Assembly: GCA_017427265.1 (NCBI GenBank)
Contig: JAFRTG010000004.1
Coordinates: 1 to 64,000, forward strand
Length of the DNA stretch: 64,000 nucleotides
Reading direction: 5' to 3'
Origin: Oscillospiraceae bacterium
GTDB taxonomy: Bacteria; Bacillota; Clostridia; Oscillospirales; Ruminococcaceae
Shown: one piece after another, positions 2,785 through 31,890 of the stretch
Layout of the letters: each line of letters opens with the position of its first letter
How positions within the stretch are numbered: the stretch's first letter is position 1
The notes under the pieces: generated by a model
The model's input: only the letters and a program-made list of their open reading frames with translations
Told to the model about the DNA's origin: nothing
Databases searched by the model: none
Translations under genes and position numbers: made by a program

Positions 2785-4146
2785 TCAGGCTTTTTTAGCA
2801 GATTTTTGACCGGTTTTTTTATCGAACCAGTGTCCGGACCGGTAGAAGCTGACGGAAATTACTGTTGCGACAGCCCAGCCGATCGGCCAGGCCATCCAGA
2901 TGCCTAGCGAGCCCAGCGGAATCGAAAGGAAAAATGCGAGCACAACGCGCAGGATCAGGTCTGTGAATGTTGCGGTCATGAATTGCGCCATCATGCCGGA
3001 GCCGCGCAGAACGCCGTCGGAGACCAGCTTCAGCGCTGCAATCGGATAAAACGGCGCAACGATCTGAAGAAACAGCTGTCCGGTCTGCATTGCCTCTGTA
3101 CTCGGCTCTCTGAGGAAGAAGCGGACGAGCGGGCTGCCCGCAAAGAGATACAGTACGATAAACGGCAAGGCAATGAGAATGACCAGCTTGCACGCAGCTT
3201 TGTGTCCGGCCGGAATGCGGTCTGTTTTGTTTGCGCCGAGATTCTGTGCTGTATAATTGGAAACGCCGTTGCCGAGCGTTGTCATGGATGTAATTACGAG
3301 ATTGTTCAGCTTGACTGCGGCCGTGTATCCTGCGACGACGCCGGAGCCGAAATCGTTGATAATGCGCTGGATCAGGATATTGCCGACGGAGATAAAGCTC
3401 TGCTGCAGAATGCTGGGAACCGCAATGACTGTGATCTGCCGCAGCAGGGAACGGGAAAAGAGTGCTGCTTTCCGCTCTGTCCGGAAGCTCCGGAACCGCA
3501 ATGCCAGAACAGCCAGTGAAAGAATACAGCTGACGGCCTGGCAGATCAGAGTCGCCCATGCCGTTCCGGGTACGCCCATCTGCAGCGATTTGACAAAGAA
3601 AATATCCAGTATGACATTGGCTGTCGAGGAAGCGGCAAGAAAATAAAACGGCGTTTTGGAATCACCGATTGCTGAGAAAATGCCGGTTGCTGTATTATAG
3701 TAGAAGATAAATGGCACTGTCCATGTGTAAATTCTCAGATAGGCAGCTGAATCAGAGAAAATATTATCCGGCGTATGGATCAGCCGGAGCAGGGGAGCGG
3801 TGAGCAGAAGCCCTGCGAGCATAAGAAATGCACATACAATACCGACCGAAATCAAAGCCGTGCTGACTGCGGTTTTCATCTCGCGCAGTTTTTTTGCGCC
3901 GAACAGTCTTGCCGTTACGACCGAGGTGCCGATGTTGCATCCGAATGCAAAGGCAATGAAAACCAATGTGATCTCGTAGCTGTTTCCGACGGCTGCAAGC
4001 GCGTCCTCATTGATATAGTTGCCTGCAACGAAGCTGTCCGCGAGATTATACATCTGCTGAAAAATAATGCTGCCGAACAGCGGCAGACAGAACCGGCGGA
4101 GTACCGCAGCGGGCTCTCCGACCGTCAGATCTTTGCTTTGCGCCAT
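2785..4146 (-). CDS. MATE family efflux transporter
   Basis: A 453-residue integral membrane protein of the MATE (multi-antimicrobial extrusion) family, which exports cationic drugs or metabolites by Na+ or H+ antiport. The N-terminus has the family signature PLFGSIIFQQMYNLADSFVAG, read here in two pieces (PLFGSIIFQQ and MYNLADSFVAG). About twelve hydrophobic segments are arranged as two MatE repeats, the second starting near SILQQSFISVGNILIQ. An open frame extends 139 codons upstream to 4563, but that part runs through the promoter and is not protein-like. I chose the ATG at 4146; the ATG five codons upstream directly abuts the AGAAAGG ribosome site and is less likely. Substrate unknown. Confidence 0.92.
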   Translation of the reverse strand: MAQSKDLTVGEPAAVLRRFCLPLFGSIIFQQMYNLADSFVAGNYINEDALAAVGNSYEITLVFIAFAFGCNIGTSVVTARLFGAKKLREMKTAVSTALISVGIVCAFLMLAGLLLTAPLLRLIHTPDNIFSDSAAYLRIYTWTVPFIFYYNTATGIFSAIGDSKTPFYFLAASSTANVILDIFFVKSLQMGVPGTAWATLICQAVSCILSLAVLALRFRSFRTERKAALFSRSLLRQITVIAVPSILQQSFISVGNILIQRIINDFGSGVVAGYTAAVKLNNLVITSMTTLGNGVSNYTAQNLGANKTDRIPAGHKAACKLVILIALPFIVLYLFAGSPLVRFFLREPSTEAMQTGQLFLQIVAPFYPIAALKLVSDGVLRGSGMMAQFMTATFTDLILRVVLAFFLSIPLGSLGIWMAWPIGWAVATVISVSFYRSGHWFDKKTGQKSAKKA

Positions 4147-7382: not shown

Positions 7383-8519
7383 GTGCGTTTTCTGCATCTT
7401 GCCGATCTGCATATCGGCAAAATCCTGCATAAGCAGAATCTGATTGAAGATCAGAAGTATATTCTGCAGCAGGTTCTGAATATTGCAAAGGAACAGCAGG
7501 TGGATGCGGTTCTGATTGCCGGCGATGTCTATCAGAGAAATGCACCTTCCTCGGAAGCAATGACTGTTTTCAGTGACTTTCTCTCTGCGCTCGCTGCGAT
7601 GAAGCTGCCGTGCTTTCTCATCAGCGGAAACCATGATTCCGCTGAGCGTGTAGCCTATCTTTCGGAACTTGCGGCGCAGTCCGGCATTCAGATTGCCCCT
7701 GCGGATTCCGCAGCAGTGTATTCGTTTCCGCTGACCGATGACTTCGGTTCGCTGACGGTGCATCTGCTGCCGTTCACGACCCCGCTGCAGGTTCGTCAGC
7801 GCTATCCGGAGGAGGCTGCGGAGATTCACTCCTATGATGACGCACTCAGGGTGCTTTTGTCGCATTACCCGGTTCCGGCAGAGGGGCGTCATGTACTGGT
7901 CGCACATCAATACCTGACCGGCGGTGCAACCTGTGATTCGGAGGAGCTTGCCATCGGAGGGCTTGACAATGTATCCGCTTCCCTGTTTGATTCTTATGAC
8001 TATGTTGCGCTTGGTCATCTTCACGGGCCGCAGTTTGTTTCCCGCGAAGCTGTGCGTTATGCGGGTTCGCCGCTGAAATATTCGTTTTCCGAGTGTACAC
8101 AGCGAAAGTCTGTGACCGTTGTTGAACTGCGTGAGAAGGGAAATCTCAGCATTGAGACCTTACCGCTCCGTCCGCTCCGGGATATGCATGAGCGGACAGG
8201 CAAACTTTCTGAGATTCTTGCTGACGCGCCTTCCGGAGATTACATGCATGTGATTCTGACCGACGAGACCGTTCCGGCAGATGCTGTCCGGCAGCTGCGC
8301 ATCATTTATCCGAATCTGCTTCGGATGTCCGTGCGGAACAGTTCGTTCCGGGAGGAGTATTCCGTGGAAGCGGGTTCTCAGCCTGAGCAGACTGATTTTC
8401 TCACGCTGCTGCAGGAGTTTTATGCGTTCCAGAATCAGGGCGCTGTGCTGAATGAAAAACAGCAGCAGATTGTCTCTGAGCTGCTTTCCAGGCTGGACGG
8501 AGAGGCGGGTGCATCATGA
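7383..8519 (+). CDS. sbcD: Exonuclease SbcCD, nuclease subunit SbcD
   Basis: SbcD is the Mre11-family metallophosphoesterase that cuts DNA hairpins and protein-blocked ends in complex with the SbcC ATPase. The 378-residue protein opens with RFLHLADLHIGK (metal-binding D and H), followed by AGDVYQRNAP, the SGNHDS motif, and ALGHLHGPQ near residue 220, which together supply the two-metal site. It starts at GTG 7383 behind a strong GGGGGAGGTG ribosome site; no in-frame ATG fits. It overlaps sbcC by four bases (ATGA), as is usual for this pair. Confidence 0.96.
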   Translation: MRFLHLADLHIGKILHKQNLIEDQKYILQQVLNIAKEQQVDAVLIAGDVYQRNAPSSEAMTVFSDFLSALAAMKLPCFLISGNHDSAERVAYLSELAAQSGIQIAPADSAAVYSFPLTDDFGSLTVHLLPFTTPLQVRQRYPEEAAEIHSYDDALRVLLSHYPVPAEGRHVLVAHQYLTGGATCDSEELAIGGLDNVSASLFDSYDYVALGHLHGPQFVSREAVRYAGSPLKYSFSECTQRKSVTVVELREKGNLSIETLPLRPLRDMHERTGKLSEILADAPSGDYMHVILTDETVPADAVRQLRIIYPNLLRMSVRNSSFREEYSVEAGSQPEQTDFLTLLQEFYAFQNQGAVLNEKQQQIVSELLSRLDGEAGAS

Positions 8520-11270: not shown

Positions 11271-13616
11271 ATGGAGCAGAAACGACCAAGAAGCCATGAA
11301 AAAGAAGTAGTATCCGGCGGTTCCGGTGTCCATCGCCGCGGCGACGGACTCGGGACAGGACCGGTTGGTTCTCAGGACGGGTATGCCGGAAAAACACCTT
11401 CCGGCGGCCACGGCAAGCGTGCTGCTGCGGTCGGCGGCGGCGGAACGATCGGTGTCCTCGCGATTGCATTTCTGTTGCTGAAAAGCTGCTCAGGCGGCGG
11501 CATGACCGATATGCTCGGCGGCTTTGCTGATCCGAGCGGAGAGCTGCCTTATCACACCGAGGAATCGCAGGCGCAGCAGTATTCGGTGGACAGTTCCGTC
11601 CCGGTTGACAATACTGTCGCCACCGGCTCGCGTGAAAAGCGCACAAAGATTCTCGGCAACAATCAGGATACGGTTACCATGATGATCTATCTCTGCGGTA
11701 CCGACCTGGAATCCAAGAGCGGCATGGCCTCCGCGGATCTGGGCGAAATCGCTGCTGCCAATTACGGTGACAATGTCAATATTATCGTGTATACCGGCGG
11801 TTGCTCGCGCTGGAAAACAGAGGGCATCAGCAGTCAGGTCAACCAGATTTACCGTGTCAGAAACGGCCGTCTGGAGCTGCTTGAGCAAAACATGGGCAAC
11901 AAAGCGATGACGAACCCCGCAACGCTGACGGAGTTCATTCAGTACTGCGCTTCCAACTTCCCCGCAAACCGGAATGAACTGATCTTCTGGGATCACGGCG
12001 GGGGATCGGTCAGCGGTTACGGCTATGATGAAAAGAACAAGAACGGCGGCTCGATGGATCTTGCCGGCATCAGCAAGGCTCTGAAAGACGGCGGCGTCAT
12101 GTTTGATTTCGTCGGATTCGACGCCTGCTTGATGGCGACTGCCGAAACTGCGCTGATGATGAACAACTACGCAGATTATATGGTCGCATCGGAGGAAACA
12201 GAGCCCGGTATCGGCTGGTATTATACCGACTGGGTGACAAAGCTCGGCAGCAATACTTCTATGCCGACGCTTGAGCTCGGCAAGAATATCTGCGATGACT
12301 TTACGTCCGCGTGCGCAAAGCGCTGCCCGGGTCAGCAGACAACGCTTTCCGTGATCGACCTTGCAGAGTTTGCCAATACGATTCCGTCGAAGCTCGGTCC
12401 GTTTGCAGAGTCTGTCAGCACGCTGATGGAAAACAAGGAATACCAGAAGGTTTCCGATGCGCGCTACGGCACAAGAGAATTTGCAGCAAGCACGCGCATT
12501 GACCAGGTTGATCTTGCGCATCTTGCACTGAACATGGGCACGAGCGAAGGCGCTGAGCTTGCGGATGCACTGAAAAAGGCAGTCAAGTATAACCGCACCT
12601 CATCCAATATGACCAATGCCTACGGCGTGTCGATCTTCTTCCCGTATAAGCGCAGCTCCTACGTTGATCCGGCGTGCAATACCTATTCGCAGATCAACAT
12701 GGACAATTCCTATATCAAGTGCATCAGGCAGTTTGCGAGCCTTGAAACCAGCGGCCAGATTTCTGCAGGCGGTTCGGGTTCTCCGCTCGGCTCGCTGTTC
12801 GGCATGAGCGATGCAAGCGGCTCCGGCGGCAGTGCCGATATGATCAGCACCCTGCTGAGCGGCTTCCTGACCTCCGGTCTTGCTGGCGGCAGAAGCATCG
12901 AAGGCCTGAATTCCGATAACATCGGATTCATGGACGAAAGCCCGCTCAGTCCGGAAGAAACAGCACAGTATCTCGCGCTGAACTACTTTGATCCGACGAA
13001 CCTGACATGGAAAGAGCAGGACGGTCAGTATAAGATGTCGCTGCCGGAATCGCAGTGGAAGCTGATTGAGACACTTGACCGCAATGTTTTCTACGATGAC
13101 GGAACCGGTTATGTTGACCTCGGTATGGACAATACCTATGATTTTGACGACGACAAGAACCTGATTGCCGATACGGATCGTAACTGGCTTGCACTGGACG
13201 GTCATATTGCCGCATTCTATCACACTGATACAGTGGAAAACGGCGACAAATATGTCATTTCCGGTTATATCCCGGCGATGCTGAACGGTGACCGCGTGAA
13301 GATTATTGTTGTCTTTGACAACGATCACCCGAAGGGCTGGGTTGTCGGTGCAGAAACGGATTACCGCAACAATGAGACCGATACTGTTGCAAAGAGCCTG
13401 ACGGAACTCAATGCCGGCGACGAAGTCGAGCTGCTCTGCGATTACTACAGCTATGACGGCGAATATCAGGACAGCTATTATCTCGGCGATAAATTTACGC
13501 TGAGTGACAAGAAGGCTATTACTTATATGAACGTCGGTGACGGTGCTGTAAAGATTATGTACTGCTTTACAGACATGTACAATGAGCAGTACTGGTCGGA
13601 AGCGATCATGCAGTAA
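11271..13616 (+). CDS. Membrane-anchored clostripain-family (C11) cysteine peptidase
   Basis: A 781-residue protein with a Gly/Lys-rich cytosolic N-terminal tail (1-50), one membrane segment (about 58-72, TIGVLAIAFLLLKSC), a low-complexity linker, and a C11 peptidase domain from about 135. The catalytic His242 lies in FWDHGGGSV and Cys286 in GFDACLMAT. C11 enzymes cleave after Arg or Lys and often mature by self-cleavage. The region after about 500 holds Gly/Ser-rich linker sequence and a beta-rich C-terminal domain of unknown function. It has no dockerin, so it probably stays on the outer face of the membrane (inference). The ATG follows GGGAGGAATGCTGT; a terminator follows the stop. Confidence 0.88.
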   Translation: MEQKRPRSHEKEVVSGGSGVHRRGDGLGTGPVGSQDGYAGKTPSGGHGKRAAAVGGGGTIGVLAIAFLLLKSCSGGGMTDMLGGFADPSGELPYHTEESQAQQYSVDSSVPVDNTVATGSREKRTKILGNNQDTVTMMIYLCGTDLESKSGMASADLGEIAAANYGDNVNIIVYTGGCSRWKTEGISSQVNQIYRVRNGRLELLEQNMGNKAMTNPATLTEFIQYCASNFPANRNELIFWDHGGGSVSGYGYDEKNKNGGSMDLAGISKALKDGGVMFDFVGFDACLMATAETALMMNNYADYMVASEETEPGIGWYYTDWVTKLGSNTSMPTLELGKNICDDFTSACAKRCPGQQTTLSVIDLAEFANTIPSKLGPFAESVSTLMENKEYQKVSDARYGTREFAASTRIDQVDLAHLALNMGTSEGAELADALKKAVKYNRTSSNMTNAYGVSIFFPYKRSSYVDPACNTYSQINMDNSYIKCIRQFASLETSGQISAGGSGSPLGSLFGMSDASGSGGSADMISTLLSGFLTSGLAGGRSIEGLNSDNIGFMDESPLSPEETAQYLALNYFDPTNLTWKEQDGQYKMSLPESQWKLIETLDRNVFYDDGTGYVDLGMDNTYDFDDDKNLIADTDRNWLALDGHIAAFYHTDTVENGDKYVISGYIPAMLNGDRVKIIVVFDNDHPKGWVVGAETDYRNNETDTVAKSLTELNAGDEVELLCDYYSYDGEYQDSYYLGDKFTLSDKKAITYMNVGDGAVKIMYCFTDMYNEQYWSEAIMQ

Positions 13617-14024: not shown

Positions 14025-14066
14025 AAAACAGGCAGATGTTTCGTCAAATGAACATCTGCCTGTTTT
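14025..14066 (-). terminator. Bidirectional terminator overlapping the histidine kinase stop
   Basis: AAAACAGGCAGATGTT pairs perfectly with AACATCTGCCTGTTTT over 16 bp (10-nt loop). The hairpin begins inside the kinase stop codon (TAA at 14065-14067), and its A/T flanks suit termination from both strands. Confidence 0.85.
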
Positions 14067-15054
14067 ATATTGTTGTTTTGTAGAAGTGAATCTCAAACGC
14101 CGCCCCATGCGGTTTGTGATTGGATGCTTTCAGGCTGCCGTCCTGTGCAGAGATGACCTTCTTTGCAAAAGCCAGTCCGATACCGAAGCCGTTCTTGGTG
14201 TACTCAGAGGAACGGTAAAAGCGCTCGAAAATATGCGGCAGTTCCGGTTCTGGAATGCCCGCTCCCGTGTCAAGAATTGTGATATTGGAAGAAATATTGC
14301 TGTCTCTTGCAGCCACAGTGACCGCGCCGCCTTCGGGCGTATGCTCGATTGCATTCTTGAGCAGATTGACAACCGCCTCAGAGGTATAATGCAGGTCGCC
14401 GATGAATTCGGGATCCCCGTCAATCTCCGTCCGGATCTCCACGCCTTTCAGTTCCGCCGTGACAGATACGGTATCTATAGACTGTTCGATCAGCTTTCGG
14501 CAGGAGACAGTATCCTTTGCAAATCTGACCGCATTTGCTTCGATACGTGAAAGGCTCAGCATCGTTTCAATCAGCCATTTCATGCGTGCGAGCAGCTCAT
14601 ACAAATCACGCAGATACTCTACACGTTCGGATTCCGACAGATCGGAGGAACGCATCAGTCCGAGTATCATCATGACCGATGTCAGCGGTGTCCGGAGCTG
14701 ATGGGAAATATCCTCCAGTGCTTCCTTCGCAAATTGTTTTTCGTTCTGCAGCTCCGTATTCTGTTCGCGCAGGCGTATTGTCATTTTATGGATTTCCGCA
14801 GAAAGGACGCTCAGCTCGCCTTCTTTGTATTCATCAAACAATATCAGATTATCACCACGCAGGATACGGTCTATATCATCACACAGCTTCATGACCTTGC
14901 TGCGTCGCTGAGAAAACTGCATTTCATAAAATACAAGAAATACCGCCGACGCTGCTGCCGCCATAATCGCGCAGGGAATACTGAAAAACAGGCAGGGGAG
15001 CAACAATACTGCTGTCAGGAGAATGTGGATGAGCCTGCGCTTTTTATCCCTCAT
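14065..15054 (-). CDS. Short intramembrane-sensing histidine kinase
   Basis: A 329-residue sensor kinase whose N-terminus has two membrane helices (about 9-26 and 28-43) with almost no external loop, the arrangement of BceS-type kinases that sense through a partner ABC transporter. After a short linker comes the H-box EDISHQLRTPLTSVM with phospho-acceptor His118, then the N-box NLLKNAIEHTPEGG, DTGAGIPE and GFGIGLAFAKKV of the HATPase domain. It overlaps the response-regulator gene by four bases (ATGA). The ABC transporter directly upstream is the likely signal partner; this is inference from architecture and position. Confidence 0.9.
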   Translation of the reverse strand: MRDKKRRLIHILLTAVLLLPCLFFSIPCAIMAAAASAVFLVFYEMQFSQRRSKVMKLCDDIDRILRGDNLILFDEYKEGELSVLSAEIHKMTIRLREQNTELQNEKQFAKEALEDISHQLRTPLTSVMMILGLMRSSDLSESERVEYLRDLYELLARMKWLIETMLSLSRIEANAVRFAKDTVSCRKLIEQSIDTVSVTAELKGVEIRTEIDGDPEFIGDLHYTSEAVVNLLKNAIEHTPEGGAVTVAARDSNISSNITILDTGAGIPEPELPHIFERFYRSSEYTKNGFGIGLAFAKKVISAQDGSLKASNHKPHGAAFEIHFYKTTI

Positions 15055-15725
15055 CCGTCCACCGCCTTATAGCCAAGCCCTCTGACGGTAACGATGATCT
15101 GCGGATTCTGCGCATCGTCCTCGATTTTCTCACGCAGCCGGCGGATATAGACGCTCAGCGTATTGTCAGAAACAAACTCCTTTGTCAGAGACCAAAGCTC
15201 CTCTGCAAGCCTGTCGCGGGACAGCATTTGGTTCTTATTGGAGAAGAACACCAGCAGCAGGCGGTATTCCAGCGCAGACATCGCAAGCTCGGTGCCGTTT
15301 TTCCGGACAATGCCTTTGATCGGGTCTATTGTGACATTGCCGCAGTGCAGCAGCGGAGAGGATTTCTGGTGCCGGCGCATGACATTTTTCATGCGGGCAA
15401 GCAGCTCCCTTGTGCCGAACGGTTTTCCGATATAGTCATCCGCGCCGATCTCAAAGCCGGCGACCGTGCAGGCTTCATCTGCCGATGCCGTGATGAAAAT
15501 GACGGGGGTATCGTCCTGCGCCTTGATCGCAGCACAGACCGAATAGCCGTTGCCGTCCTTCAGCGAAATATCGAGCAGCACGCAGTCATAGGCGTTTGCT
15601 TCAAACAGGCGCAGCGCGTTCTTCTGTCCGTTTGCATAATCTGTGGGATACCCCTCAGAATTGAGAAACCGCATCAGAAAAGTTGCGAGCTGTTCGTCAT
15701 CCTCAACCAGCAAAATCTTCGGCAT
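15051..15725 (-). CDS. OmpR/PhoB-family response regulator
   Basis: A 224-residue two-domain regulator. The receiver domain has the acidic pair Asp9/Asp10 in LLVEDDEQ, phospho-acceptor Asp52 in VLLDISLKDGNGY, Thr in VIFITAS and Lys in IGKPFGTRELLAR; the C-terminal winged helix ends with VSDNTLSVYIRRLREKIE and VRGLGYKAVDG. It should bind the promoter of the adjacent ABC genes (inference). The start MPKILLVE at 15725 is chosen because CAGGAGGTGAACGGA lies just upstream; an open frame continues 18 codons further but through the promoter at 15751-15779. Confidence 0.93.
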   Translation of the reverse strand: MPKILLVEDDEQLATFLMRFLNSEGYPTDYANGQKNALRLFEANAYDCVLLDISLKDGNGYSVCAAIKAQDDTPVIFITASADEACTVAGFEIGADDYIGKPFGTRELLARMKNVMRRHQKSSPLLHCGNVTIDPIKGIVRKNGTELAMSALEYRLLLVFFSNKNQMLSRDRLAEELWSLTKEFVSDNTLSVYIRRLREKIEDDAQNPQIIVTVRGLGYKAVDG

Positions 15726-15750: not shown

Positions 15751-15779
15751 ATTATAGCATACTCTCCCTGCGAATGCAA
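15751..15779 (-). promoter_or_regulatory. Sigma-A promoter of the two-component genes
   Basis: Minus-strand TTGCAT and TATAAT, 17 bp apart, extended -10 TGC. It lets the regulator and kinase be made without the upstream ABC transcript. Confidence 0.75.
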
Positions 15780-15805
15780 GCGGACGGCGTCAAATCCGTC
15801 CGCTT
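15778..15805 (-). terminator. Hairpin between the permease-hydrolase and regulator genes
   Basis: The inverted repeat AAGCGGACGG / CCGTCCGCTT starts 5 bases after the permease stop. It lacks a good T tail, so it may attenuate, not fully stop, transcription from the ABC genes into the two-component genes. Its distal arm touches the -35 box of the regulator promoter. Confidence 0.5.
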
Positions 15806-15809
15806 CGTG

Positions 15810-18800
15810 TTATTCTGTTGTTTCTGCAAGGAAATCAAGAATCGAGCTTGCGATTTGTTCCGGCTTCTGCGCATAAAATATGCCGTGGTCGCCCGCAACA
15901 TATTCCAGTCTGTAATTACCGATCTTCTCTGCAAAATCGTTCTCCTCGCTTTTCGCTTGTTCTATTTCCCATTCCACCTGTTTCCATTCTGCTCTTGCTG
16001 CGGTTTCAGGGTCGGAATTGAATTCTTTGCCTTCCGCTTCAAAATCTGCTTTCATACGCTCAATGGCTGCGCGTACATCTTCTTCACAGGTATAAAGTGT
16101 AGAAAAATACAGCTTTGGCGTATCAGTCGGGCACAGAATCTCCCCCATATGCGTGACCTCCTGCTTCTCAAGCAATATCTGAGACGAGAAGGCGGCAGTC
16201 CAGAATCGGTTATTACAGAGCTTTGAAAGTCTGAGCTGCTCGTCTGTAAAGAGCGCTGCGCCCTGCGTTGCTCCGCCTTCGGATTTGTCGGGGAAAAGTC
16301 TGTTCAGTCCAAGCCATGTCCGCAGAACCAGCTTATGCATTGCTGCCTGAGCAGCTTCGTCTGAAGGAAACGCCTCCTCGGCGGTATATGTTTGCCAGAG
16401 CTCGCTTTTGGGCGGTATTGTGCCGTCGAGAATGATGATCGCCTCGACTTCGTCTGGATACTGCATCGACCAGTACAGAGCATAAAGATCGGCAATGGAA
16501 TGCGGCATCAGCACATACGGTGCTTCAAAGCCCGCATTTTTCAGTCCTGCACGATAATCCTCAACGATCTGTTCTACAGTCTGCGGTTTCAGAGAATCGC
16601 CGCTGAATCCGTAGCCTGCACAGTCGGGATAAACAAGTGTATTCTCCTTACCGAGCAGTTCATTCAGCTTTGTCGTTTCAACGGGAAAAGCATAACTTGC
16701 CTGCCCTGCAAGCCCGACAATGGTATGCTTGCCGTGCTCTGCACCGGTGGAGTAGACATTCATTTTGAAGCCGTTTGCATCCACGAGATTAAGATATCCT
16801 GCCTTTGCATATTCGTTCCGGTCACGGTGATAGGCGGCGACGCTGTAAATGCGCAGCCCGGCAATCGCAAGGATAAATGCACCCGCGGCAGCAAGGATAC
16901 TGTTCCGGAGAATGTGCGATTTCTCTGTATCGAGCTTCATTTCCGAACCGCGAATCTGATCGGTCAGACTGTCTCTGTTCTGAGTGCGGAGCATCACCAG
17001 TGAGGTGATGCAGCCCGCCGCAAATGCCGCCAGTGCTGAGAAGCCGACACGCATAAACGGCGTGATGTGGTCGATCCGGACAAGATTCATCAGCATTTTT
17101 TTGGTTCCTTCGCTCTCGTCCACAAACGAATCACGGATGATTGTATTCAGAACGCTCTCGGCGCCGAAGATGATGACAGCACAGATCACCGCGGAAATGA
17201 TCGCCGCTGCACCCGCAAATTGCAGGCATTCAATGATCGCCATGCGGTCAAGCTGCCGGTCGGTCATGCCGACGCACTGTAAGGATGCCAGCTCGCTGCG
17301 GCGATTTGCAATGCCGGTCGAGATGATGTTCAGCAGATTGATGAGCGCCGCCAGTGCAAGCAGCAGATTCAGCATCAGCACGCCGGCGCGAACCGTCGCC
17401 AGAATACTGTGCGTTTTCCACTTGATGCCGTAAAAGTCGCCATAATTGTTTTCCGGTTCATCCGGATTGAGCATCCTCACAAAATCGAACTCCGAATGCG
17501 CCTCGAACCAGTCCTTTGCCTTTTTATAATCCGCGGCATTGTACTGATAATCCTCTGCGCTGCTTCCGGCAAAACAAAACTTCGCATTCGCTGTCCCGAA
17601 AGACATACCGAACCATTCTGCACCGATCTTTTCATGCGTTTCAATCGCTCCGATCAGCAAATCATATTCATTTTTCATTGAGACCGAACCAAGGATATTG
17701 AGTGTCTGTTCCTTTTCCTCGTATTCCGCATACTTGAGAAGATCAATGTAATCCATGTTTTCAGTGTCTGCATCCTCCCGCAGATGCATGCAGATGCTGA
17801 AAACCGGCAGCGAACCTCGCTGCAGCTGCTCCGCATTCTGTTCGTAATCCTTGCAGTTTATATTGTACACATATCCGCCGGTGCTGACCAGCTCGTCATA
17901 GCTGACAGCTGCATTGCGTCCGAAAAGCTGTGTGTAGGCTTCTCTGTTGACATAACGAGCATATATATTGCCTTTATTCTCTGTTGAATGAAAAGACTCA
18001 AACGTATCAACGGCGATGTTTTCAAACAGCCCGCTGTCTTGGATCGCCTTTACCGCTTCGGCATAGCTGATGCCCTTTTGAGGGTTGCCGATCTCCAACT
18101 CAAAATCAATATCGGCTGCTTCTTCGTTGAACTCGTATACCTCAGCCTTGATATAGCCGTTGATGCTGCGCTCGGCTGTCTCCGTCAGGGAGGAAAACAG
18201 CGCGAACATCGTGATGGAAACGGTCAGCGTCAGAACTGTGATTGCAAAGCGTTTCTTCTCACGGCGTGCGTTCCGGGAAGCAATGCTGCCCGAAACGCCG
18301 AACAGCAGTCCTGAGAGCGTGCGCTTTTTGATCTTTTCGACATTGTTGGCGCGGGCGTTGATCGCTTCCATCGGCGTTTTTTTGATGATGCGCATGCCGA
18401 CGCCGTATGCCGAGAGAAATACCCACACGATGCCGACAACCGCTGCAACAAGCAGCATTTTCGGGTCAACCGAAAACGGCAGGGCGAGCTTTGCATTTGA
18501 CATGCCTTGAAACAGCTCGGAAATACCGGAAGCAACCATAACATGATACATCAGATAGGCAAAGCAGATGCCTGCAAACAATCCGAACGGAATTGCAATG
18601 ACGCAGAGCCGGAATCCCTCGTAAGTGATGATGCGCACGATCTGCTCCGGCGTTGCGCCGATCGACTGCAAAACGCCGTAATGCCGTTCGCGCTCTTTTG
18701 AGGATACCTCAAACGCCGTGTCAATAATCATACGCAGCGCAAATGCAATCAGGATTGCGAAAATGAAGAAGATACAGAAAATCCGCAGCCTGAAAAGTTG

Positions 18801-19232
18801 TGCGCCGTCACCGATGCCGTCCAGATTCATCAGCGTATTGTTCCACTCATATTTCTTGGGCAGATCATAAAACAGATGCTCTGCGCCGACATTCTGCAGC
18901 GCCTTCTGTATCCAGATTTCCCGGTCGCCCATATCGCTCCCGAACAGAATGTATGCCGTCACGGTGTTGTCCGGCGTGCGCTCCAGCTTGCCCCGCTTGA
19001 TATGATCTGTGCTGCAAATCGCTTCGCCCTGCTGTTCCGTCAGCCCGGTGACGGTGAGATGATAGGGCGCCCTGCTGTAACAGGTATTTTCCAGACAGTC
19101 CATGCTAACGCTGTACAGCACAAAAATCATGGTCATGACTGCCACGGCGGCAATGATGCTGACGCAGGTGAAAACGGACTGCCTTTTCTGCGCTTTGATG
19201 TAGCGGGAAGCGAGCAGATTCTCATATTTCAT
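15810..19232 (-). CDS. FtsX-type ABC permease fused to an extracellular alpha/beta hydrolase
   Basis: A 1140-residue membrane protein. Residues 1-750 form two FtsX/MacB-like permease units: TM1 at about 18-40, an external domain, three more helices with YGVLQSIGATPEQI in the coupling region; then a second set with a large external domain (about 345-600) and NRRSELASLQCVGMTDRQL. After a short cytosolic stretch comes a ninth helix (about 776-797, SILAAAGAFILAIAGLRIY), then an alpha/beta hydrolase (about 810-1140) with nucleophile Ser912 in MPHSIAD, not the usual GxSxG, and His1116 in GDHGIFY. By topology the hydrolase lies outside. The start at 19232 follows GAGGAGG and overlaps the ATPase stop by 11 bases. 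Substrate unknown; a peptide or lipid-linked compound is plausible. Confidence 0.85.
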   Translation of the reverse strand: MKYENLLASRYIKAQKRQSVFTCVSIIAAVAVMTMIFVLYSVSMDCLENTCYSRAPYHLTVTGLTEQQGEAICSTDHIKRGKLERTPDNTVTAYILFGSDMGDREIWIQKALQNVGAEHLFYDLPKKYEWNNTLMNLDGIGDGAQLFRLRIFCIFFIFAILIAFALRMIIDTAFEVSSKERERHYGVLQSIGATPEQIVRIITYEGFRLCVIAIPFGLFAGICFAYLMYHVMVASGISELFQGMSNAKLALPFSVDPKMLLVAAVVGIVWVFLSAYGVGMRIIKKTPMEAINARANNVEKIKKRTLSGLLFGVSGSIASRNARREKKRFAITVLTLTVSITMFALFSSLTETAERSINGYIKAEVYEFNEEAADIDFELEIGNPQKGISYAEAVKAIQDSGLFENIAVDTFESFHSTENKGNIYARYVNREAYTQLFGRNAAVSYDELVSTGGYVYNINCKDYEQNAEQLQRGSLPVFSICMHLREDADTENMDYIDLLKYAEYEEKEQTLNILGSVSMKNEYDLLIGAIETHEKIGAEWFGMSFGTANAKFCFAGSSAEDYQYNAADYKKAKDWFEAHSEFDFVRMLNPDEPENNYGDFYGIKWKTHSILATVRAGVLMLNLLLALAALINLLNIISTGIANRRSELASLQCVGMTDRQLDRMAIIECLQFAGAAAIISAVICAVIIFGAESVLNTIIRDSFVDESEGTKKMLMNLVRIDHITPFMRVGFSALAAFAAGCITSLVMLRTQNRDSLTDQIRGSEMKLDTEKSHILRNSILAAAGAFILAIAGLRIYSVAAYHRDRNEYAKAGYLNLVDANGFKMNVYSTGAEHGKHTIVGLAGQASYAFPVETTKLNELLGKENTLVYPDCAGYGFSGDSLKPQTVEQIVEDYRAGLKNAGFEAPYVLMPHSIADLYALYWSMQYPDEVEAIIILDGTIPPKSELWQTYTAEEAFPSDEAAQAAMHKLVLRTWLGLNRLFPDKSEGGATQGAALFTDEQLRLSKLCNNRFWTAAFSSQILLEKQEVTHMGEILCPTDTPKLYFSTLYTCEEDVRAAIERMKADFEAEGKEFNSDPETAARAEWKQVEWEIEQAKSEENDFAEKIGNYRLEYVAGDHGIFYAQKPEQIASSILDFLAETTE

Positions 19233-19932
19233 TGCGATCAGCCTCCTCTGCGGCAGCGTTTGCTTCATCGGAAATGATTTTGCCGTCGCTGAGTACAAGA
19301 ATGCGGTCGCACTGCTCTGCGATGTTCTCGTCATGTGTGATGATGATAATAGTCTGCTTCAATTCTTTATTTGAGCGGCGGAATAATTCCATGATTTCAG
19401 CACTGTTTTTGCTGTCAAGGTTTCCGGTCGGTTCATCGGCAAGAATCACCTGCGGAGAAGAAAAAATCGCTCTGCCGATGGAGACCCTCTGCTGCTGACC
19501 GCCTGACATCTGCGAGGGAAGATGATCTTTCCGCTCTTTCAGTCCGAGCATGTCCAGTATTTTTTCGAGATGCTCTCTGTCGGGCTTTCGGCCGTCCATG
19601 AGCAGCGGAAGCGTGATGTTCTCCTCCGCAGTCAGAACAGGAATCAGGTTGTAAAACTGATAGATCAACCCGACCTGCCGTCTGCGGAAAATCGCAAGCT
19701 CGCGGTTATTCTGCTGAAAAACATCCTGCCCGTCCAGATAGATTTTTCCGGATGTCGGACGGTCAACTGCACCGATCATATGCAGCAGCGTGGATTTTCC
19801 CGAACCGCTTGCCCCGACAATCGCTACCATTTGTCCTTTCGGCACGCTGAACGATACACCGTCCACAGCCTTGACCTCGTTTTCTCCTTTGCCGTATACC
19901 TTGCAAAGATTCTCGACTTTTAACAGTTCCAT
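19222..19932 (-). CDS. ABC transporter ATPase, MacB/LolD/BceA type
   Basis: A 236-residue nucleotide-binding subunit for the FtsX-type permease encoded next. Walker A is GASGSGKST (40-48), followed by the Q-loop region IYQFYNLIPVLTAEEN typical of this subfamily, the signature MSGGQQQRVSIGRAI, Walker B VILADEPTGNLDS and the switch His in IIIITHDENIAEQC. Members power mechanotransmission, not classical transport: lipoprotein release, efflux through an outer partner, or peptide-antibiotic resistance. AGGAGGAACGCTT precedes the ATG. The gene is first in its operon. Confidence 0.95.
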   Translation of the reverse strand: MELLKVENLCKVYGKGENEVKAVDGVSFSVPKGQMVAIVGASGSGKSTLLHMIGAVDRPTSGKIYLDGQDVFQQNNRELAIFRRRQVGLIYQFYNLIPVLTAEENITLPLLMDGRKPDREHLEKILDMLGLKERKDHLPSQMSGGQQQRVSIGRAIFSSPQVILADEPTGNLDSKNSAEIMELFRRSNKELKQTIIIITHDENIAEQCDRILVLSDGKIISDEANAAAEEADRNEI

Positions 19933-19959: not shown

Positions 19960-20012
19960 ATTATACCAAGGTTACATGACAACAGCATTATCTGAATCTT
20001 ACAGTTTTGTCA
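19960..20012 (-). promoter_or_regulatory. Regulated promoter of the ABC permease-hydrolase operon with candidate operator
   Basis: Minus-strand TATAAT (19960-19965) has the extended -10 TGG but no good -35, as expected for an activator-dependent promoter. Upstream lies the near-palindrome TTACAGTTTTGTCA (19999-20012) and a related half-site TTACATGACAA (about 19971-19981). Spacing suits an OmpR-type regulator dimer, plausibly the regulator encoded at 15051-15725. Confidence 0.5.
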
Positions 20013-20186: not shown

Positions 20187-22553
20187 TTATTTGGAAGGTG
20201 CCAGTTCTTCAGCCGTAATCAGCTTCGCAATGTACTTGAGAATCTTTGTGGTATCGTCCGGTGTGACATTGCCGTCGCCGTCCACATCGGCCAGCTTTTT
20301 GCCGTTATCTGTGATTTTGGCCGTGGAATCACCGCTTGCAAACTTTGCGGTCAGAACCGCATCGGAGACATCAACATTGTCGCTCTCGTTTGCATCGCCC
20401 CAGAGGCCGTTAGCCGGTGTGCCCTTACCGTCAGAGGTCGTCGTAACAGTCGTTGTGGTGGTCGTTTTGACCGGTTCTGTTGTGGTTTCGGAAAGCGTTG
20501 TGGTCTCTTTGATGACTTCCTTTGTCGTGGTTGTCACAACAGGAGGATCAACATGCTGCGAGCCGTTCGGCGACGGGCTTGCGCTGATGGAGCCCTTTCC
20601 GGTTGTGCCATCCGGCTCAATGCCGTAGACCAGCGTACCGCTCTCATAAACAGTGATGTAAGGCGTTTTTTCGTTCTTGGTTCCGGAAAGTCCCTGCGCA
20701 GAATAATCATTCGTGCCGTCCCAGCCTTTACCGTAGTTCGGATAAACGAGCGCAAGCATGATTTCACACTGATGACGTCCTTCGGAGATCGGCAGGAATG
20801 CACGGCCGTCCGGGAAGGTGATTTCAACATAGTAGATGTTGCCGTCATACTTCTGCGGCTTGGAAATAACAGCGCTCTTGACGCCCTCGGATGCGTACAT
20901 ACCGGTCTGATCGCGGTCTACGCGCATTTCGATTGCGGTCGGATCAACGCCGCCGGCGATCAGTTCGCTCAGATCCATGTAATAGCGCATGGAGACATTG
21001 TCGATGCATCTTGCCGGCCAGCCGGTGTGATTCGTCATTTTCAGGCTGAGTGTCGAACCGCCGGAATCGTGTGTTGCCTTTGCCTCAACATAGAGCTCAT
21101 CGTCGCGGGTTTCCGGATACGGGAACTTGGGATCGCTCTTTCCGCCGTAGTCATTCAGCATTTTGCAGAGCAGTGCGGTATAACCGGCGTTATAGTCCGT
21201 AGCAACCTCGTTGTTGACGAAGTTGTTACGCTTGTCAACATAGGAGCCGTCCTCGTTCGGGCCGCCGACGAGTGCACCGTAGAGAATATGGCGGCTTTCC
21301 TCGGGAGATTCGTCGCTGTTCTTCCACGAGCAGTGTGCAGTACGGTGGTGCGGGTGGCTCGGTGCATTGTCAGCGAATCCGACAATATACGGAATCTTGT
21401 TACTGTTGTCGCCGAGTGTGTAATTGATCTGCTTTTCGTACAGGCTCTTGATCGCTGCAGCGTCGCCGTCGTCCTTCAGGAAATGGTCATACGCAACTGC
21501 TGCAGTGAAGCCGATGGAGTTTGCATAGCGCAGACAGCCCCATGTATCAACAAAGCAGAGACCGTCCTTGGTCTTTTTTCCGTCCTTGACCCAGTGCATG
21601 ATATGCTTCTTGGCCTGTGCCTTCCATTCTTCATCGCCGGTATTGATGGCATAGAGCAGCGTGCCGCCCTGCTGCACATCGTCCCAGCACTGTGCCCACG
21701 AATATTTCAGGCAGGTCTGGCCGTTTTCGTTGCCGAGATTCGGGATATAGGTCGCAGCCTTATCCAGATAGCTCTTGTCCTGTGTTGCGATGTACAGCCA
21801 GTTTGCACACCAGAACAGTTCATCATAGAAATGACTGGAACGGTAGAAGTTTTTCGCATCACTCAGCATATAAGTGTCGTCGCTGCGGTCTGCATCAGCC
21901 ATCTTGAAGAAATTGACAGCGTGCTTCAGATAGCCGTCAAGCACCGTCTGATCGACTCTGCCCTTGAGCGCAACGCTTCCGGCTGCCAGAGCTGCGCCCA
22001 TTTCCGCAGTGACGGCGCTGCACTTTCTGCCCTGGAGATGACCGCGGCCGTTGCCGACATTCTGTTCCTTCATGCCGTATTCGAGCAGTTCAACGGGTCC
22101 CCACCAGCTGTGGTCGTCCTGACCGACGCCGACCTGGAAAATTACTTTGTCACCAAGGTCGCATTCTGCAAGGTAATCCAGTACCCATTTCAGGTTGTTG
22201 ACATAGTTTGTCATTTCGCCAGCCTGTTCCACGCCGTCCGGGTACTCATAGAGTCCCCATGCAAGCATGGCTGCGGAATAGGACATAGGCAGATTGAATT
22301 TGACATGGTCACCGGCGTCGTACCAGCCGCCGTTCAGATCGTCACCGACCGTTGAATCGGCACGCCATTCCACACGGTTCCATTCCGGCAGGACGCCGGC
22401 CTGCTGACACTCATAGAAATAGAGCGACATCTGCAGTGCCTTCGCGTAGTCAAAGGCCGGTGCCGCGCTGACGGAGCCTGCCGGCATAGAGGACAGTGTT
22501 CCGCCAAGGACGGCAGCCGCAGCTGCGATTGCCGTCATTCGTTTTTTTCTCAT
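20187..22553 (-). CDS. Secreted GH9 endoglucanase with CBM3c and dockerin
   Basis: A 788-residue cellulosomal enzyme that cleaves beta-1,4 bonds in cellulose, probably in processive mode as in other GH9-CBM3c proteins. Order: signal peptide (1-30, ending VSAAPA); GH9 (alpha/alpha)6 barrel to about 475 with catalytic base region Asp79/Asp82 in GGWYDAGDHVKF, the conserved His in RTAHCSWKN and acid Glu449 in NNEVATDYNAG; CBM3c (about 485-640); a Thr-rich linker with runs of TTTT; and a C-terminal dockerin with two calcium loops, DANESDNVDVSD and DVDGDGNVTPDD. Length fits the theme. The dockerin is nearly the same type as in the GH43 gene beside it. The ATG follows AGGAGGGGAATTTTT; promoter at 22606-22634. 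Confidence 0.95.
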   Translation of the reverse strand: MRKKRMTAIAAAAAVLGGTLSSMPAGSVSAAPAFDYAKALQMSLYFYECQQAGVLPEWNRVEWRADSTVGDDLNGGWYDAGDHVKFNLPMSYSAAMLAWGLYEYPDGVEQAGEMTNYVNNLKWVLDYLAECDLGDKVIFQVGVGQDDHSWWGPVELLEYGMKEQNVGNGRGHLQGRKCSAVTAEMGAALAAGSVALKGRVDQTVLDGYLKHAVNFFKMADADRSDDTYMLSDAKNFYRSSHFYDELFWCANWLYIATQDKSYLDKAATYIPNLGNENGQTCLKYSWAQCWDDVQQGGTLLYAINTGDEEWKAQAKKHIMHWVKDGKKTKDGLCFVDTWGCLRYANSIGFTAAVAYDHFLKDDGDAAAIKSLYEKQINYTLGDNSNKIPYIVGFADNAPSHPHHRTAHCSWKNSDESPEESRHILYGALVGGPNEDGSYVDKRNNFVNNEVATDYNAGYTALLCKMLNDYGGKSDPKFPYPETRDDELYVEAKATHDSGGSTLSLKMTNHTGWPARCIDNVSMRYYMDLSELIAGGVDPTAIEMRVDRDQTGMYASEGVKSAVISKPQKYDGNIYYVEITFPDGRAFLPISEGRHQCEIMLALVYPNYGKGWDGTNDYSAQGLSGTKNEKTPYITVYESGTLVYGIEPDGTTGKGSISASPSPNGSQHVDPPVVTTTTKEVIKETTTLSETTTEPVKTTTTTTVTTTSDGKGTPANGLWGDANESDNVDVSDAVLTAKFASGDSTAKITDNGKKLADVDGDGNVTPDDTTKILKYIAKLITAEELAPSK

Positions 22554-29775: not shown

Positions 29776-31890
29776 ATGAAACGAATCAAAAAATTCGAGT
29801 GCTGCGCTGTTTCTGCGCTGATGCTTATGATGACGGTTTTCTGCACCGGAATTTCGGCGGCAGCGGAGCCGGAAGAAATTCTGCTTTTCTTTTTGTCTGA
29901 AAGCTATACCGAATATCTGACCATTCCGGATTCCCTGAATACTGCATATCAGCTGCCTGCTGATGAGACCTATACAGTCAGCGGAAGTGTGGTCGGTGTC
30001 GATGAAAACGGGCTTGTGACCGTGATGGGCAGAGAGGTATACTACATCGGTTCCGGTATGCGGATTGATTATGAGGAGGGGACTGCCGTCGTGACCGGCA
30101 GAACCTCCGGAACAAAATATCAGTTCCGTGTTTGTGAATACGGCAGATACTGCGCCGAGCGAACGGTCAATGAATATATCCAAACCAATATGACGGAAGA
30201 TCTGACCGACAGGGAAAAGCTGGAGCTTGCCTGTCAGTTTGTCGCAGGCTATGACTATTCCCCGAATTTTTCCAGTATGATATCAATGGTTGCGACCGGC
30301 GTCGGCGGTGATTGCTGGGCCAGCACTTCTGCCATCAACTATATCTGCACTCAGCTCGGATTCCGTTCGCGGACAAGAGATGCCTCAAAGGATCCCGGTG
30401 CGGGCTCCGGACACCGGAACAATGTTGTGGAAACAACCGACGGCATGACCTATATGGTTGACTGCGGCTACACAGGCTCGGCGCCCCGGACGTATTCTGT
30501 TACGCCTTATACAGTTCCGTTCCGCTTTACGATTCGCGCAAACGAGACGCTGGAAATCACGGAATATTTCGGATTTGATACCGAGCTTGTAATCCCTGCA
30601 GAAATTGACGGTCAGAGAGTGACCTCGATCGGCGCAGCGGCGATCGGCAATGCGAACCGCTATCTCGGAACACCGATTACGTCCGTGACGCTGCCGGATA
30701 CACTGGAGCATATCGGTGACAGTGCGTTCTGGGATATGAAGGGACTGACAGAACTGCGGATTCCCGCTTCTGTCGGCTCGATTGAGAAGGCGGCATTTTC
30801 AGGGTGCGACTCACTTCATCTTGTGATTGACCCCGCGAATCCGTTTTATGTGATGCAGGATGATATTCTGTACACGAAGGATATGACGACATTGGTTTGC
30901 GCGGTTGGATTCAACAAAATGACTGACAACGGAAACGGCGGCATGACCTATATCAAAAGAGCCGTCACGGTTCCGGACGGTGTGAAATATATCGAGGATC
31001 AGGCTTTTTATAAATGCACGTCGCTTTCTGAGATCACATTCCCGGATACACTGCTGCATATCGGATATCGTGCATTCGGAAGCTGTTCACTCCGGAAAGC
31101 CGTTGTTTTTCCGGCTTCCCTCAAGGGAATCGGCTACGGTGCATTCTCAGACAGCGGCGCGCCCGCCTATGTGTTCAAGGGTTCTGATTATGTCATCAAC
31201 GATACGACCGAAAACAAGCTGAATGAAAAGGAATCCGGCGAAACGCTTGAGAGTACAACATTTGGTACACAGCCGATTTTTCTGATTGCACCGAATGGTT
31301 CGGCCGCAGAGCAGTATGCTGCCGATTACGGCACCCGCGTCTTTACCGTCATCAGAGACGGCAAGACCGAAAAAGAAGAAAGCGAGCGTTATCGCTATGC
31401 GGAATACAAGGATTCGGAAACGCTTTTGCTTGCGGCTGATGAATCTTCCGCCGGAATCTGGCAGCTGATCTGGAATCCGGATACCGGCCTTGCGCTTCAT
31501 CTGAGCGGAACGGATATTTCGACGCTCGGTTCGGATTTCTGCTACAGCAATGCGGTTCAGATGCTGATTGTAGATCCGACGGTTACGCATGTGGACGATT
31601 CGGTTCTGACAGTGCTTTCGCGTCTGACAGAAATCTGCGGCGAGCCGGGCACCTATGCACAGCAGCTTGCGTTCCGGCTGGGCTATCATTTTACGCCCAA
31701 CGTACAGCAGTCACTTGCCGGAGACTGCAACAATGACGGCGCTGTCGATTCTGCCGACTGCGTCATGCTGGCGAAATGGCTCGGATGCAGCGGCACGCTG
31801 ATAAAATGGGAAAATGCAGACATGAACGGTGATTCCGTCATCAGCGGTGTTGATCTTTCGATGCTCAGGCGCGTGATCCTGACTGTTTGA
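29776..31890 (+). CDS. Secreted transglutaminase-like / LRR_5 protein with dockerin
   Basis: A 704-residue secreted protein. Signal peptide at 1-30 (CTGISAAAEP); a transglutaminase-like papain-fold domain at about 140-235 with Cys180 in GGDCWAS, His213 in GHRNNVV and Asp229 in MVDCGYT; BspA-type leucine-rich repeats (LRR_5) from about 265 to 470, with units such as ITSVTLPDTLEHIGDSAFWDM and SLSEITFPDTLLHIGYRAF; a variable region; and a C-terminal dockerin with loops DCNNDGAVDSAD and DMNGDSVISGVD. The dockerin differs from those of the GH9 and GH43 enzymes. Such a domain could cleave or cross-link protein on the cell surface or the cellulosome; the reaction is inference. AAGGAGGTTACTT precedes the ATG. 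Confidence 0.88.
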   Translation: MKRIKKFECCAVSALMLMMTVFCTGISAAAEPEEILLFFLSESYTEYLTIPDSLNTAYQLPADETYTVSGSVVGVDENGLVTVMGREVYYIGSGMRIDYEEGTAVVTGRTSGTKYQFRVCEYGRYCAERTVNEYIQTNMTEDLTDREKLELACQFVAGYDYSPNFSSMISMVATGVGGDCWASTSAINYICTQLGFRSRTRDASKDPGAGSGHRNNVVETTDGMTYMVDCGYTGSAPRTYSVTPYTVPFRFTIRANETLEITEYFGFDTELVIPAEIDGQRVTSIGAAAIGNANRYLGTPITSVTLPDTLEHIGDSAFWDMKGLTELRIPASVGSIEKAAFSGCDSLHLVIDPANPFYVMQDDILYTKDMTTLVCAVGFNKMTDNGNGGMTYIKRAVTVPDGVKYIEDQAFYKCTSLSEITFPDTLLHIGYRAFGSCSLRKAVVFPASLKGIGYGAFSDSGAPAYVFKGSDYVINDTTENKLNEKESGETLESTTFGTQPIFLIAPNGSAAEQYAADYGTRVFTVIRDGKTEKEESERYRYAEYKDSETLLLAADESSAGIWQLIWNPDTGLALHLSGTDISTLGSDFCYSNAVQMLIVDPTVTHVDDSVLTVLSRLTEICGEPGTYAQQLAFRLGYHFTPNVQQSLAGDCNNDGAVDSADCVMLAKWLGCSGTLIKWENADMNGDSVISGVDLSMLRRVILTV

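What the first reader, a model, noticed from the sequence alone, without database searches (positions are those of the whole stretch)
15810..19932. ABC permease fused to an extracellular alpha/beta hydrolase, with its ATPase
The permease has the usual two FtsX units but continues into a ninth helix and a full alpha/beta hydrolase with a Ser (912) and His (1116) in the right places. By counting helices the hydrolase faces outside. This would couple a mechanotransmitting ABC protein to an enzyme on the cell surface, for example one that cleaves a bound antibiotic, lipid or signal peptide. I do not know a described system of this design.
Basis: partly seen in the sequence, partly recalled or inferred. 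Interest (0 to 1): 0.78.

Follow-up and report, generated by a model that had tools for sequence, protein, structure and literature searches.

The report
ABC transporter with built-in surface hydrolase
In a group of Ruminococcus-like bacteria, a membrane machine that uses ATP to do work outside the cell has been joined into one protein with an enzyme that should sit on the cell surface, usually beside its own sensor pair, perhaps so that a membrane-bound toxin or lipid is pulled out and cut in one step.

Summary
One 1140-residue ORF (15810-19232, minus) carries a duplicated FtsX-type permease (residues 1-764), a ninth helix and an alpha/beta hydrolase (about 800-1140) with Ser912, Asp936 and His1116, behind its ATPase gene (19222-19932). 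It is not an assembly fusion: both halves lie in one frame in 13 of 30 genus genomes and 21 of 30 named loci (20 complete, one cut by its contig end). The ninth helix is the hydrolase's own anchor: 9 of 10 stand-alone relatives in this genome show it, the tenth is cut. The locus continues into a response regulator and a kinase with almost no outside part. A 25-base operator-like site lies once, before this ATPase gene, in each of the 13 of 30 genus genomes that hold it. Closest designs: E. coli YbbAP-TesA (Type VII ABC plus separate hydrolase) and the streptococcal nsr operon (anchored nisin protease, BceAB-type transporter, two-component system). Likely work: the permease takes an amphiphilic antibiotic or lipid from the outer leaflet and passes it to the tethered hydrolase.

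The parts
19222..19932 (-). ABC ATPase (236 aa), MacB/LolD type
   Evidence: Pfam ABC_tran E 8.5e-36; LolD, MacB, YbbA, BceA, PsdA and FtsE among PDB matches; 42% identical to E. coli YbbA
16941..19232 (-). Permease part of the fusion, residues 1-764: 8 helices, two FtsX units, outside domains about 39-150 and 348-615
   Evidence: Pfam FtsX, two stretches; hydropathy; the unfused permeases of L090 (two) and L092 (two) stop at the position matching residue 764
15813..16940 (-). Hydrolase part of the fusion, residues 765-1140 (own anchor helix plus extracellular alpha/beta hydrolase)
   Evidence: Abhydrolase_1 in 21 of 21 fused proteins; stand-alone paralogues with the same anchor
16845..16901 (-). 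Ninth helix, residues 778-796
   Evidence: hydropathy 1.87 over 19 residues
16497..16499 (-). Ser912, proposed nucleophile
   Evidence: identical in 21 of 21
16425..16427 (-). Asp936, candidate catalytic acid
   Evidence: identical in 21 of 21, but Ala or Ser in stand-alone paralogues L004, L044, L045 and L047
15885..15887 (-). His1116, proposed catalytic base
   Evidence: identical in 21 of 21
15778..15805 (-). Hairpin between fusion gene and regulator gene, followed by TTGCAT - 17 bases - TATAAT before the regulator
   Evidence: hairpin (listed on the + strand; the stem reads on both); the promoter-like pair is read by eye and is not in the scan's list (its first hexamer is weak); TATAAT before the regulator is seen in the window and 15 of 16 loci compared, the exception being L071
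15051..15725 (-). Response regulator, OmpR/PhoB type (224 aa from the ATG at 15725)
   Evidence: Response_reg and Trans_reg_C; cognate regulator in 22 of 30 named loci
14065..15054 (-). Histidine kinase (329 aa) with a hydrophobic hairpin and almost no outside loop, intramembrane-sensing type
   Evidence: HisKA and HATPase_c; N-terminus of this form in the window and the 20 loci aligned, of 22 that have the kinase. The scan marked one helix only (8-26); the second is read by eye
19988..20012 (-). 25-base operator-like site upstream of the ATPase gene
   Evidence: single copy in this genome at up to 3 mismatches; 13 of 30 genus genomes have it at up to 2 mismatches, once each, always before this ATPase gene

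Best explanation
It is a Type VII (MacB/FtsX, mechanotransmission) ABC complex whose permease has been fused end to end with a membrane-anchored extracellular serine hydrolase, beside an intramembrane-sensing two-component system. Proposed working: an amphiphilic compound in or on the outer leaflet (a peptide or lipopeptide antibiotic, or an aberrant lipid) enters the permease's outward side; ATP-driven closing lifts it towards the two outside domains; the hydrolase, tied to the same chain, cleaves it; cycling of the transporter is read by the kinase, which raises transcription of the ATPase and fusion genes through the operator-like site. Shown here: anatomy, conservation, conserved catalytic residues, topology by sequence, gene order, a conserved site. 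Inferred: direction, substrate, coupling of ATPase and hydrolase, regulator binding, sensing through the transporter.
For: Fusion conserved in one frame. The ATPase gene adjoins the permease gene in 30 of 30 named loci. The cognate regulator-kinase pair is beside it in 22 of 30; in 6 of the other 8 the contig ends first on the downstream side, two (L067, L070) lack it within about 5 kb. Kinase with almost no outside part in the window and 20 loci aligned. Operator-like site once per genome and only here in the 13 of 30 genus genomes that hold it. ATPase and cognate regulator are most conserved (80-94% and 81-93%), permease and hydrolase less (42-73% and 49-81%); mean pairwise identity is lowest in outside domain 2 (0.39) and the hydrolase cap (0.48) against 0.76 in the helical core, as expected if substrates differ. 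Ser/Asp/His identical 21 of 21; hydrolase dN/dS 0.11-0.46 in the 8 pairs chosen, two of them with dS above 1. Precedents: YbbAP-TesA (PMC12646458, parts 1-3 of 7 read), SaNSR with NsrFP and NsrRK (PMC5786555, passages), flux sensing by BceAB-S (PMC10314905, passages).
Against: No structure model could be made. Profile comparison with YbbP gave no significant match (probability 0.2%), and solved permeases match the permease profile only weakly (YtrF E 0.024, LolC E 0.11). Some relatives keep the module without the hydrolase (L087, L088, L090, L092), so the enzyme is an accessory. Two fused loci (L067, L070) lack the two-component genes nearby. Stand-alone hydrolases of this family are not especially near ABC ATPase genes. 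The window's own copy has an altered elbow (PHSIA where most have xHSYG or xHSYA), and stand-alone paralogues L047 and L019 have lost the Ser. Beyond the common tree, outside domain 2 and the cap vary together only weakly (partial r 0.2, p 0.006, one of five such tests; domain 1 and cap r 0.1, p 0.16).
Confidence: 0.5

Rival explanations
1. Lipid housekeeping: as proposed for YbbAP-TesA, the machine extracts lysophospholipids or other membrane lipids and the hydrolase deacylates them; no antibiotic is involved.
For: YbbAP-TesA is the closest described design and hydrolyses esters and thioesters (PMC12646458). PDB sequence matches of the hydrolase are mostly esterases and haloalkane dehalogenases, all weak (best E 2e-4).
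Against: A neighbouring two-component system with an intramembrane-sensing kinase and a single-target operator-like site points to an induced response, and the fast divergence of the outside domains fits changing substrates better than a constant lipid.
Confidence: 0.25
2. The hydrolase is a passenger: the ABC and two-component module works alone, and the fused enzyme is a membrane-anchored hydrolase that gained co-expression without mechanical coupling.
For: Unfused modules exist (L090, L092), and L087 and L088 keep only a linker-like tail, as if the enzyme was lost. Hydrolase parts seem to recombine apart from the permease (L068/L093: dS 0.22 in the permease, 1.27 in the hydrolase). Their divergence follows the permease core less (r 0.46-0.60) than the outside domains do (0.75-0.81).
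Against: The fusion is kept in one frame over a broad set of species, with few changes on the tree (two; one origin not excluded) and the catalytic residues intact; co-expression alone would not need a fusion.
Confidence: 0.25
3. The hydrolase is a non-catalytic binding domain that helps the permease recognise its ligand.
For: The window's own copy has an altered elbow and scores below the Pfam cut-off; stand-alone relatives L047 and L019 lack the Ser.
Against: Ser912, Asp936 and His1116 are identical in 21 of 21 fused proteins, with Gly or Ala two after the Ser in all.
Confidence: 0.1
4. Sequencing or assembly artefact joining two genes.
For: In G201 the two halves lie in two frames.
Against: In-frame fusion in many separate genome assemblies; in G201 the break lies past the junction, between anchor and hydrolase, and the junction itself is in frame.
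Confidence: 0.01

Closest known systems
E. coli YbbAP-TesA (Type VII ABC transporter plus periplasmic lysophospholipase; PMC12646458, parts 1-3 of 7 read)
   Same: Duplicated MacB-type permease with two outside domains, a separate ATPase of the same kind (42% identity), and a serine hydrolase acting on the outer side.
   Different: TesA is a separate SGNH/GDSL protein with no significant match to this hydrolase; YbbP has 10 helices, this permease 8 plus the hydrolase anchor; no two-component system is mentioned for YbbAP in the parts read; here the enzyme is covalently fused. Profile match to YbbP not significant.
Streptococcal nsr operon: SaNSR plus NsrFP (BceAB type) plus NsrRK (PMC5786555, passages read)
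   Different: SaNSR is a separate protease; NsrP is of the BceB type (outside domain between helices 7 and 8). Here an alpha/beta hydrolase is fused to a permease with two outside domains.
Bce-like modules, BceRS-BceAB (PMC3023708, PMC10314905, PMC8913810; passages read)
   Same: ABC transporter beside a response regulator and an intramembrane-sensing kinase; transporter-based sensing is proposed there and inferred here.
   Different: BceB has exactly 10 helices and one large loop between 7 and 8; here 8 plus 1 helices and two outside domains, plus a hydrolase.
Stand-alone membrane-anchored alpha/beta hydrolases of the same genome and order (no family name found)
   Same: Same anchor and similar PY(V/I)LMPHS and GDH regions; the ten in this genome are 26-41% identical.
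   Different: Not fused. 3 of 30 stretches around such genes hold an ABC ATPase gene (a fourth, L123, holds only the fusion operon's own), against 3 of 20 control stretches (one control, L138, itself holds a hydrolase hit; three ATPase queries only, stretches of unequal length).

Membership tests
Type VII (MacB/FtsX) ABC systems | FtsX-type permease units with an outside domain between the first two helices of each unit | tested here: met
   Two FtsX stretches above cut-off; outside domains between helices 1-2 and 5-6
Type VII (MacB/FtsX) ABC systems | ATPase of the MacB/LolD/FtsE type | tested here: met
   (best NCBIfam models are below their own cut-offs)
Type VII (MacB/FtsX) ABC systems | Mechanotransmission, no transport across the membrane | not testable with these tools
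   needs structures in several states
YbbAP-TesA | Permease homologous to YbbP with 10 helices | tested here: not met
   8 plus 1 helices; profile match not significant
YbbAP-TesA | Partner is a TesA-type SGNH hydrolase | tested here: not met
   no significant match to TesA (probability 3%); alpha/beta hydrolase instead
Bce-like module | Two-component system beside the ABC genes, kinase with two helices and under about 11 residues between them | tested here: met
   gene order; kinase N-terminus, the second helix read by eye (the scan marked one); definition from passages of PMC3023708
Bce-like module | Permease with exactly 10 helices and one large loop between helices 7 and 8 | tested here: not met
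Bce-like module | Transporter required for kinase signalling | not testable with these tools
   needs a genetic experiment
Bce-like module | ABC genes controlled by the adjacent regulator | tested here: inconclusive
   conserved single-copy operator-like site upstream of the ATPase gene; binding not shown
Alpha/beta hydrolase fold, active serine hydrolase | Ser in a small-x-Ser-x-small elbow, plus His and acid in order | tested here: met
   two before the Ser stands Pro in the window and 5 others, Gly, Ala or Val in the rest; the acid is uncertain (Asp936 candidate)
SaNSR (nisin resistance protease) | NSR-type protease fold (recalled: S41-like) | tested here: not met
   Pfam gives alpha/beta hydrolase-type families, with Esterase, Thioesterase, Peptidase_S28 and DUF1749 weaker

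The most novel reading that the evidence does not exclude
A single-chain mechano-enzyme: an ABC permease whose ATP cycle loads substrate from the membrane into its own covalently attached surface hydrolase, while an intramembrane-sensing kinase reads the same cycle, so that sensing, extraction and destruction of a membrane-active compound are one machine; hydrolase parts are exchanged by recombination to change specificity.
Probability: 0.35. Interest if true: 0.78.

Novelty: new variant of a known kind. Interest (0 to 1): 0.58.

Why it matters
What a Type VII ABC system does is set by its outside partner. A hydrolase partner was described in 2025 for E. coli (YbbAP-TesA), where the authors found little evidence that ATP stimulates the esterase, probably because the test substrates needed no extraction (PMC12646458). 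A natural covalent fusion with an unrelated hydrolase fold, fixed 1:1, would be convergent support for the idea that such permeases feed enzymes, and it makes coupling directly testable. It also joins this idea to a Bce-like sensing arrangement in one locus. No description of this fusion appeared among the papers listed in seven searches; four of them listed only the best of more hits, and only open-licence papers are held.

Tried and rejected
My first idea, that the fusion is a recent one-base event at an overlapping stop/start (note), was dropped: the junction is in frame in the window and all 20 complete fused loci shown, and in L082. The join at or near the hydrolase's own start still suggests that the two genes once lay end to end.

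Internal start at Met765: 5 of the 21 fused genes have no ATG there (L064, L070, L075, L081, L083), and no ribosome-binding site is evident by eye before it in the window; rejected.

ABC association of the whole hydrolase family: not enriched (3 of 30 against 3 of 20 control stretches).

Fusion elsewhere: no further fusion in samples of the order (297 genomes, E 1e-14) or phylum (398 genomes, E 1e-35, strict); the one other long frame with a hydrolase (G310, 631 aa) holds a stand-alone gene. In the family sample (396 genomes, E 1e-60) 4 genomes, this one included, have it intact and 1 split. These are samples with cut-offs, not a full count.

PADLOC: no match for the fusion protein at E 0.01.

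Error put right: the regulator query was read one base out of frame; its identities there are not used, and redoes it.
Full report
WHAT IS THERE. The minus-strand ORF at 15810-19232 encodes 1140 residues from an ATG that overlaps the end of the ATPase gene at 19222-19932. Pfam finds FtsX in two stretches (E 1.5e-17); the ATPase, regulator and kinase also match their families. A hydropathy scan finds nine helices: 20-38, 151-169, 209-227, 260-278, 329-347, 616-634, 672-690, 729-747 and 778-796. With the N-terminus inside, the loops 39-150, 348-615 and 797-1140 are outside. Charge agrees in part: loop 279-328 has 14 K/R against 3 D/E and the two large outside parts are net -25 each, but the shorter inside loops are near neutral.

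REAL FUSION. In the genus sample 13 of 30 genomes have both halves in one open frame (11 complete, 2 incomplete at contig ends), the other 12 at 57-70% identity to the window; G412 has pieces of both halves on two contigs, with one stop inside the second. A scan of named species genomes gave 30 loci, in records named Ruminococcus, Oscillospiraceae, Clostridiales or Clostridia, 29 of 30 labelled MAG; 9 of 30 titles name a rumen, omasum or duodenum. Of these 30, 21 have both halves in one frame (20 complete and stop-free; L072 up to its contig end), 1 has a frame break after the anchor (L082), 4 end inside the permease (L084, L086, L089, L091), and 4 have no hydrolase (L087, L088, L090, L092). 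L064 and L070 come from one MAG, which so has two fused copies. On a permease tree of 33 rows the fused form (L082 counted as fused) needs two changes; one origin is not excluded (48% of bootstrap trees). In samples of the order and phylum no other fusion was seen at the cut-offs used.

HOW THE FUSION AROSE. The unfused permeases in L090 and L092 end at the position matching residue 764, and the fused ones continue with Met-Lys-Leu-Asp or similar and the anchor. The same genome holds ten stand-alone relatives, 26-41% identical to this part; nine show an anchor helix at the same place and the tenth is cut by its contig end. So the ninth helix is the hydrolase's own anchor, and two complete proteins were joined end to end. 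L087 and L088 stop 11 and 9 residues past the junction in linker-like sequence, which looks like loss of the enzyme after fusion, though a tail that came first is not excluded.

THE ENZYME. Ser912, Asp936 and His1116 are identical in 21 of 21 fused proteins (window and 20 loci); the residue two before Ser is Gly, Pro, Ala or Val and the one two after is Gly or Ala. All 21 match Abhydrolase_1 at E up to 0.1, the best at 4.1e-10, the window's own at 0.021; the best profile matches among solved structures are hydrolases, esterases, proline iminopeptidase and haloalkane dehalogenases, all weak (best E 2e-4). Asp936 is a candidate acid only: stand-alone relatives L004, L044, L045 and L047 lack it. 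The hydrolase is under purifying selection (dN/dS 0.11-0.46 in the 8 pairs chosen; two have dS above 1 and are rough), and in the pair L068/L093 it is far more diverged than the permease (dS 1.27 against 0.22), which points to exchange by recombination; the pair window/L064 shows the reverse (hydrolase 81%, permease 61% identical).

THE SETTING. The ATPase gene adjoins the permease gene in 30 of 30 named loci. The cognate regulator and kinase are beside it in 22 of 30 (in L081 upstream and divergent); in 6 the contig ends first downstream; L067 and L070 lack them within about 5 kb. The kinase begins with a hydrophobic hairpin with only a few residues to spare between its halves, in the window and the 20 loci aligned of the 22; the scan marked only its first helix, the second is read by eye. 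Upstream of the ATPase gene a site is strongly conserved among 28 sequences compared (core words in 24-27 of 28; L092, whose ATPase gene follows another permease gene, lacks the full site). At up to 3 mismatches it occurs once in the window's genome. At up to 2 mismatches it occurs once in each of 13 of 30 genus genomes, with no hit of the reversed control, and all 13 lie just before this ATPase gene. Before the regulator a TATAAT is seen in the window and 15 of 16 loci compared, in most of them behind a hairpin. This is what an inducible transporter with a separately expressed sensor pair would look like; binding is not shown.

CONSERVATION PATTERN. Against the window, best matching segment in each named locus that has one: ATPase 80-94%, cognate regulator 81-93%, kinase 70-85%, permease 42-73%, hydrolase 49-81%. 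Within the fusion, over 21 proteins, outside domain 2 (mean pairwise identity 0.39) and the hydrolase cap (0.48) vary most and the helical core least (0.76); the borders are mine. Of five partial tests given the core, domain 2 with cap gave r 0.2 (p 0.006), domain 2 with the catalytic part 0.19 (p 0.02), domain 1 with cap 0.1 (p 0.16), domain 1 with domain 2 -0.05 (p 0.7), and the two hydrolase parts with each other 0.75.

MECHANISM. Best reading: a Type VII ABC machine lifts an amphiphile from the outer leaflet and its tethered hydrolase cuts it, while an intramembrane-sensing kinase reads transporter cycling. The first half rests on YbbAP-TesA (parts 1-3 of 7 of PMC12646458 read), where a separate TesA sits over the outside domains with its active site facing them; the second on the Bce modules (passages of PMC10314905, PMC3023708 and PMC8913810). 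The nsr operon (passages of PMC5786555) shows that a single-helix-anchored surface protease can belong to such a transporter and sensor pair. Coupling, substrate and sensing are inference. Rivals are lipid housekeeping, an uncoupled passenger enzyme, and a non-catalytic domain.

MEMBERSHIP. It is a Type VII ABC system by permease and ATPase. It is not a YbbAP-TesA member (helix number, hydrolase fold, no significant profile match) and not a strict Bce-like module (permease topology), though it meets the kinase and gene-order criterion. By inference it works like both. The papers listed in seven searches held no description of this fusion (listings capped in 39, 40, 61 and 83; open-licence papers only).

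Noticed in passing
L014 around 3850-3930 and L082 around 7385-7430: In G201 (and L082, probably the same genome) the fusion gene has a frame break between anchor and hydrolase at an A-rich stretch; a true mutation, a sequencing error or a programmed shift cannot be told apart here. Not mended.
   Followed up: partly
L094-L103 (stretches of the window's own genome): Ten stand-alone relatives of the hydrolase in one genome; elsewhere some have lost the nucleophile Ser (L047, L019). The one in L095 lies in a run that looks like GntR regulator, ABC ATPase, two permeases, CPBP-like protein, hydrolase (names by look, not from a family search).
   Followed up: partly
window 20190-22553 (-) and 29776-31887 (+): Cellulosome-type proteins: GH9 with CBM3 and a dockerin just below cut-off, and an LRR protein with a dockerin.
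   Followed up: no
window 48620-55762 (+): A 2381-residue BspA-type leucine-rich-repeat protein.
   Followed up: no
window 11271-13613 (+): A clostripain-family (Peptidase C11) protein of 781 residues near the kinase end of the operon, on the other strand.
   Followed up: no
L090 5001-9872 and L092 2-7280: Unfused relatives with two (L090) or three (L092) permease copies beside one ATPase gene and the same regulator-kinase pair.
   Followed up: no
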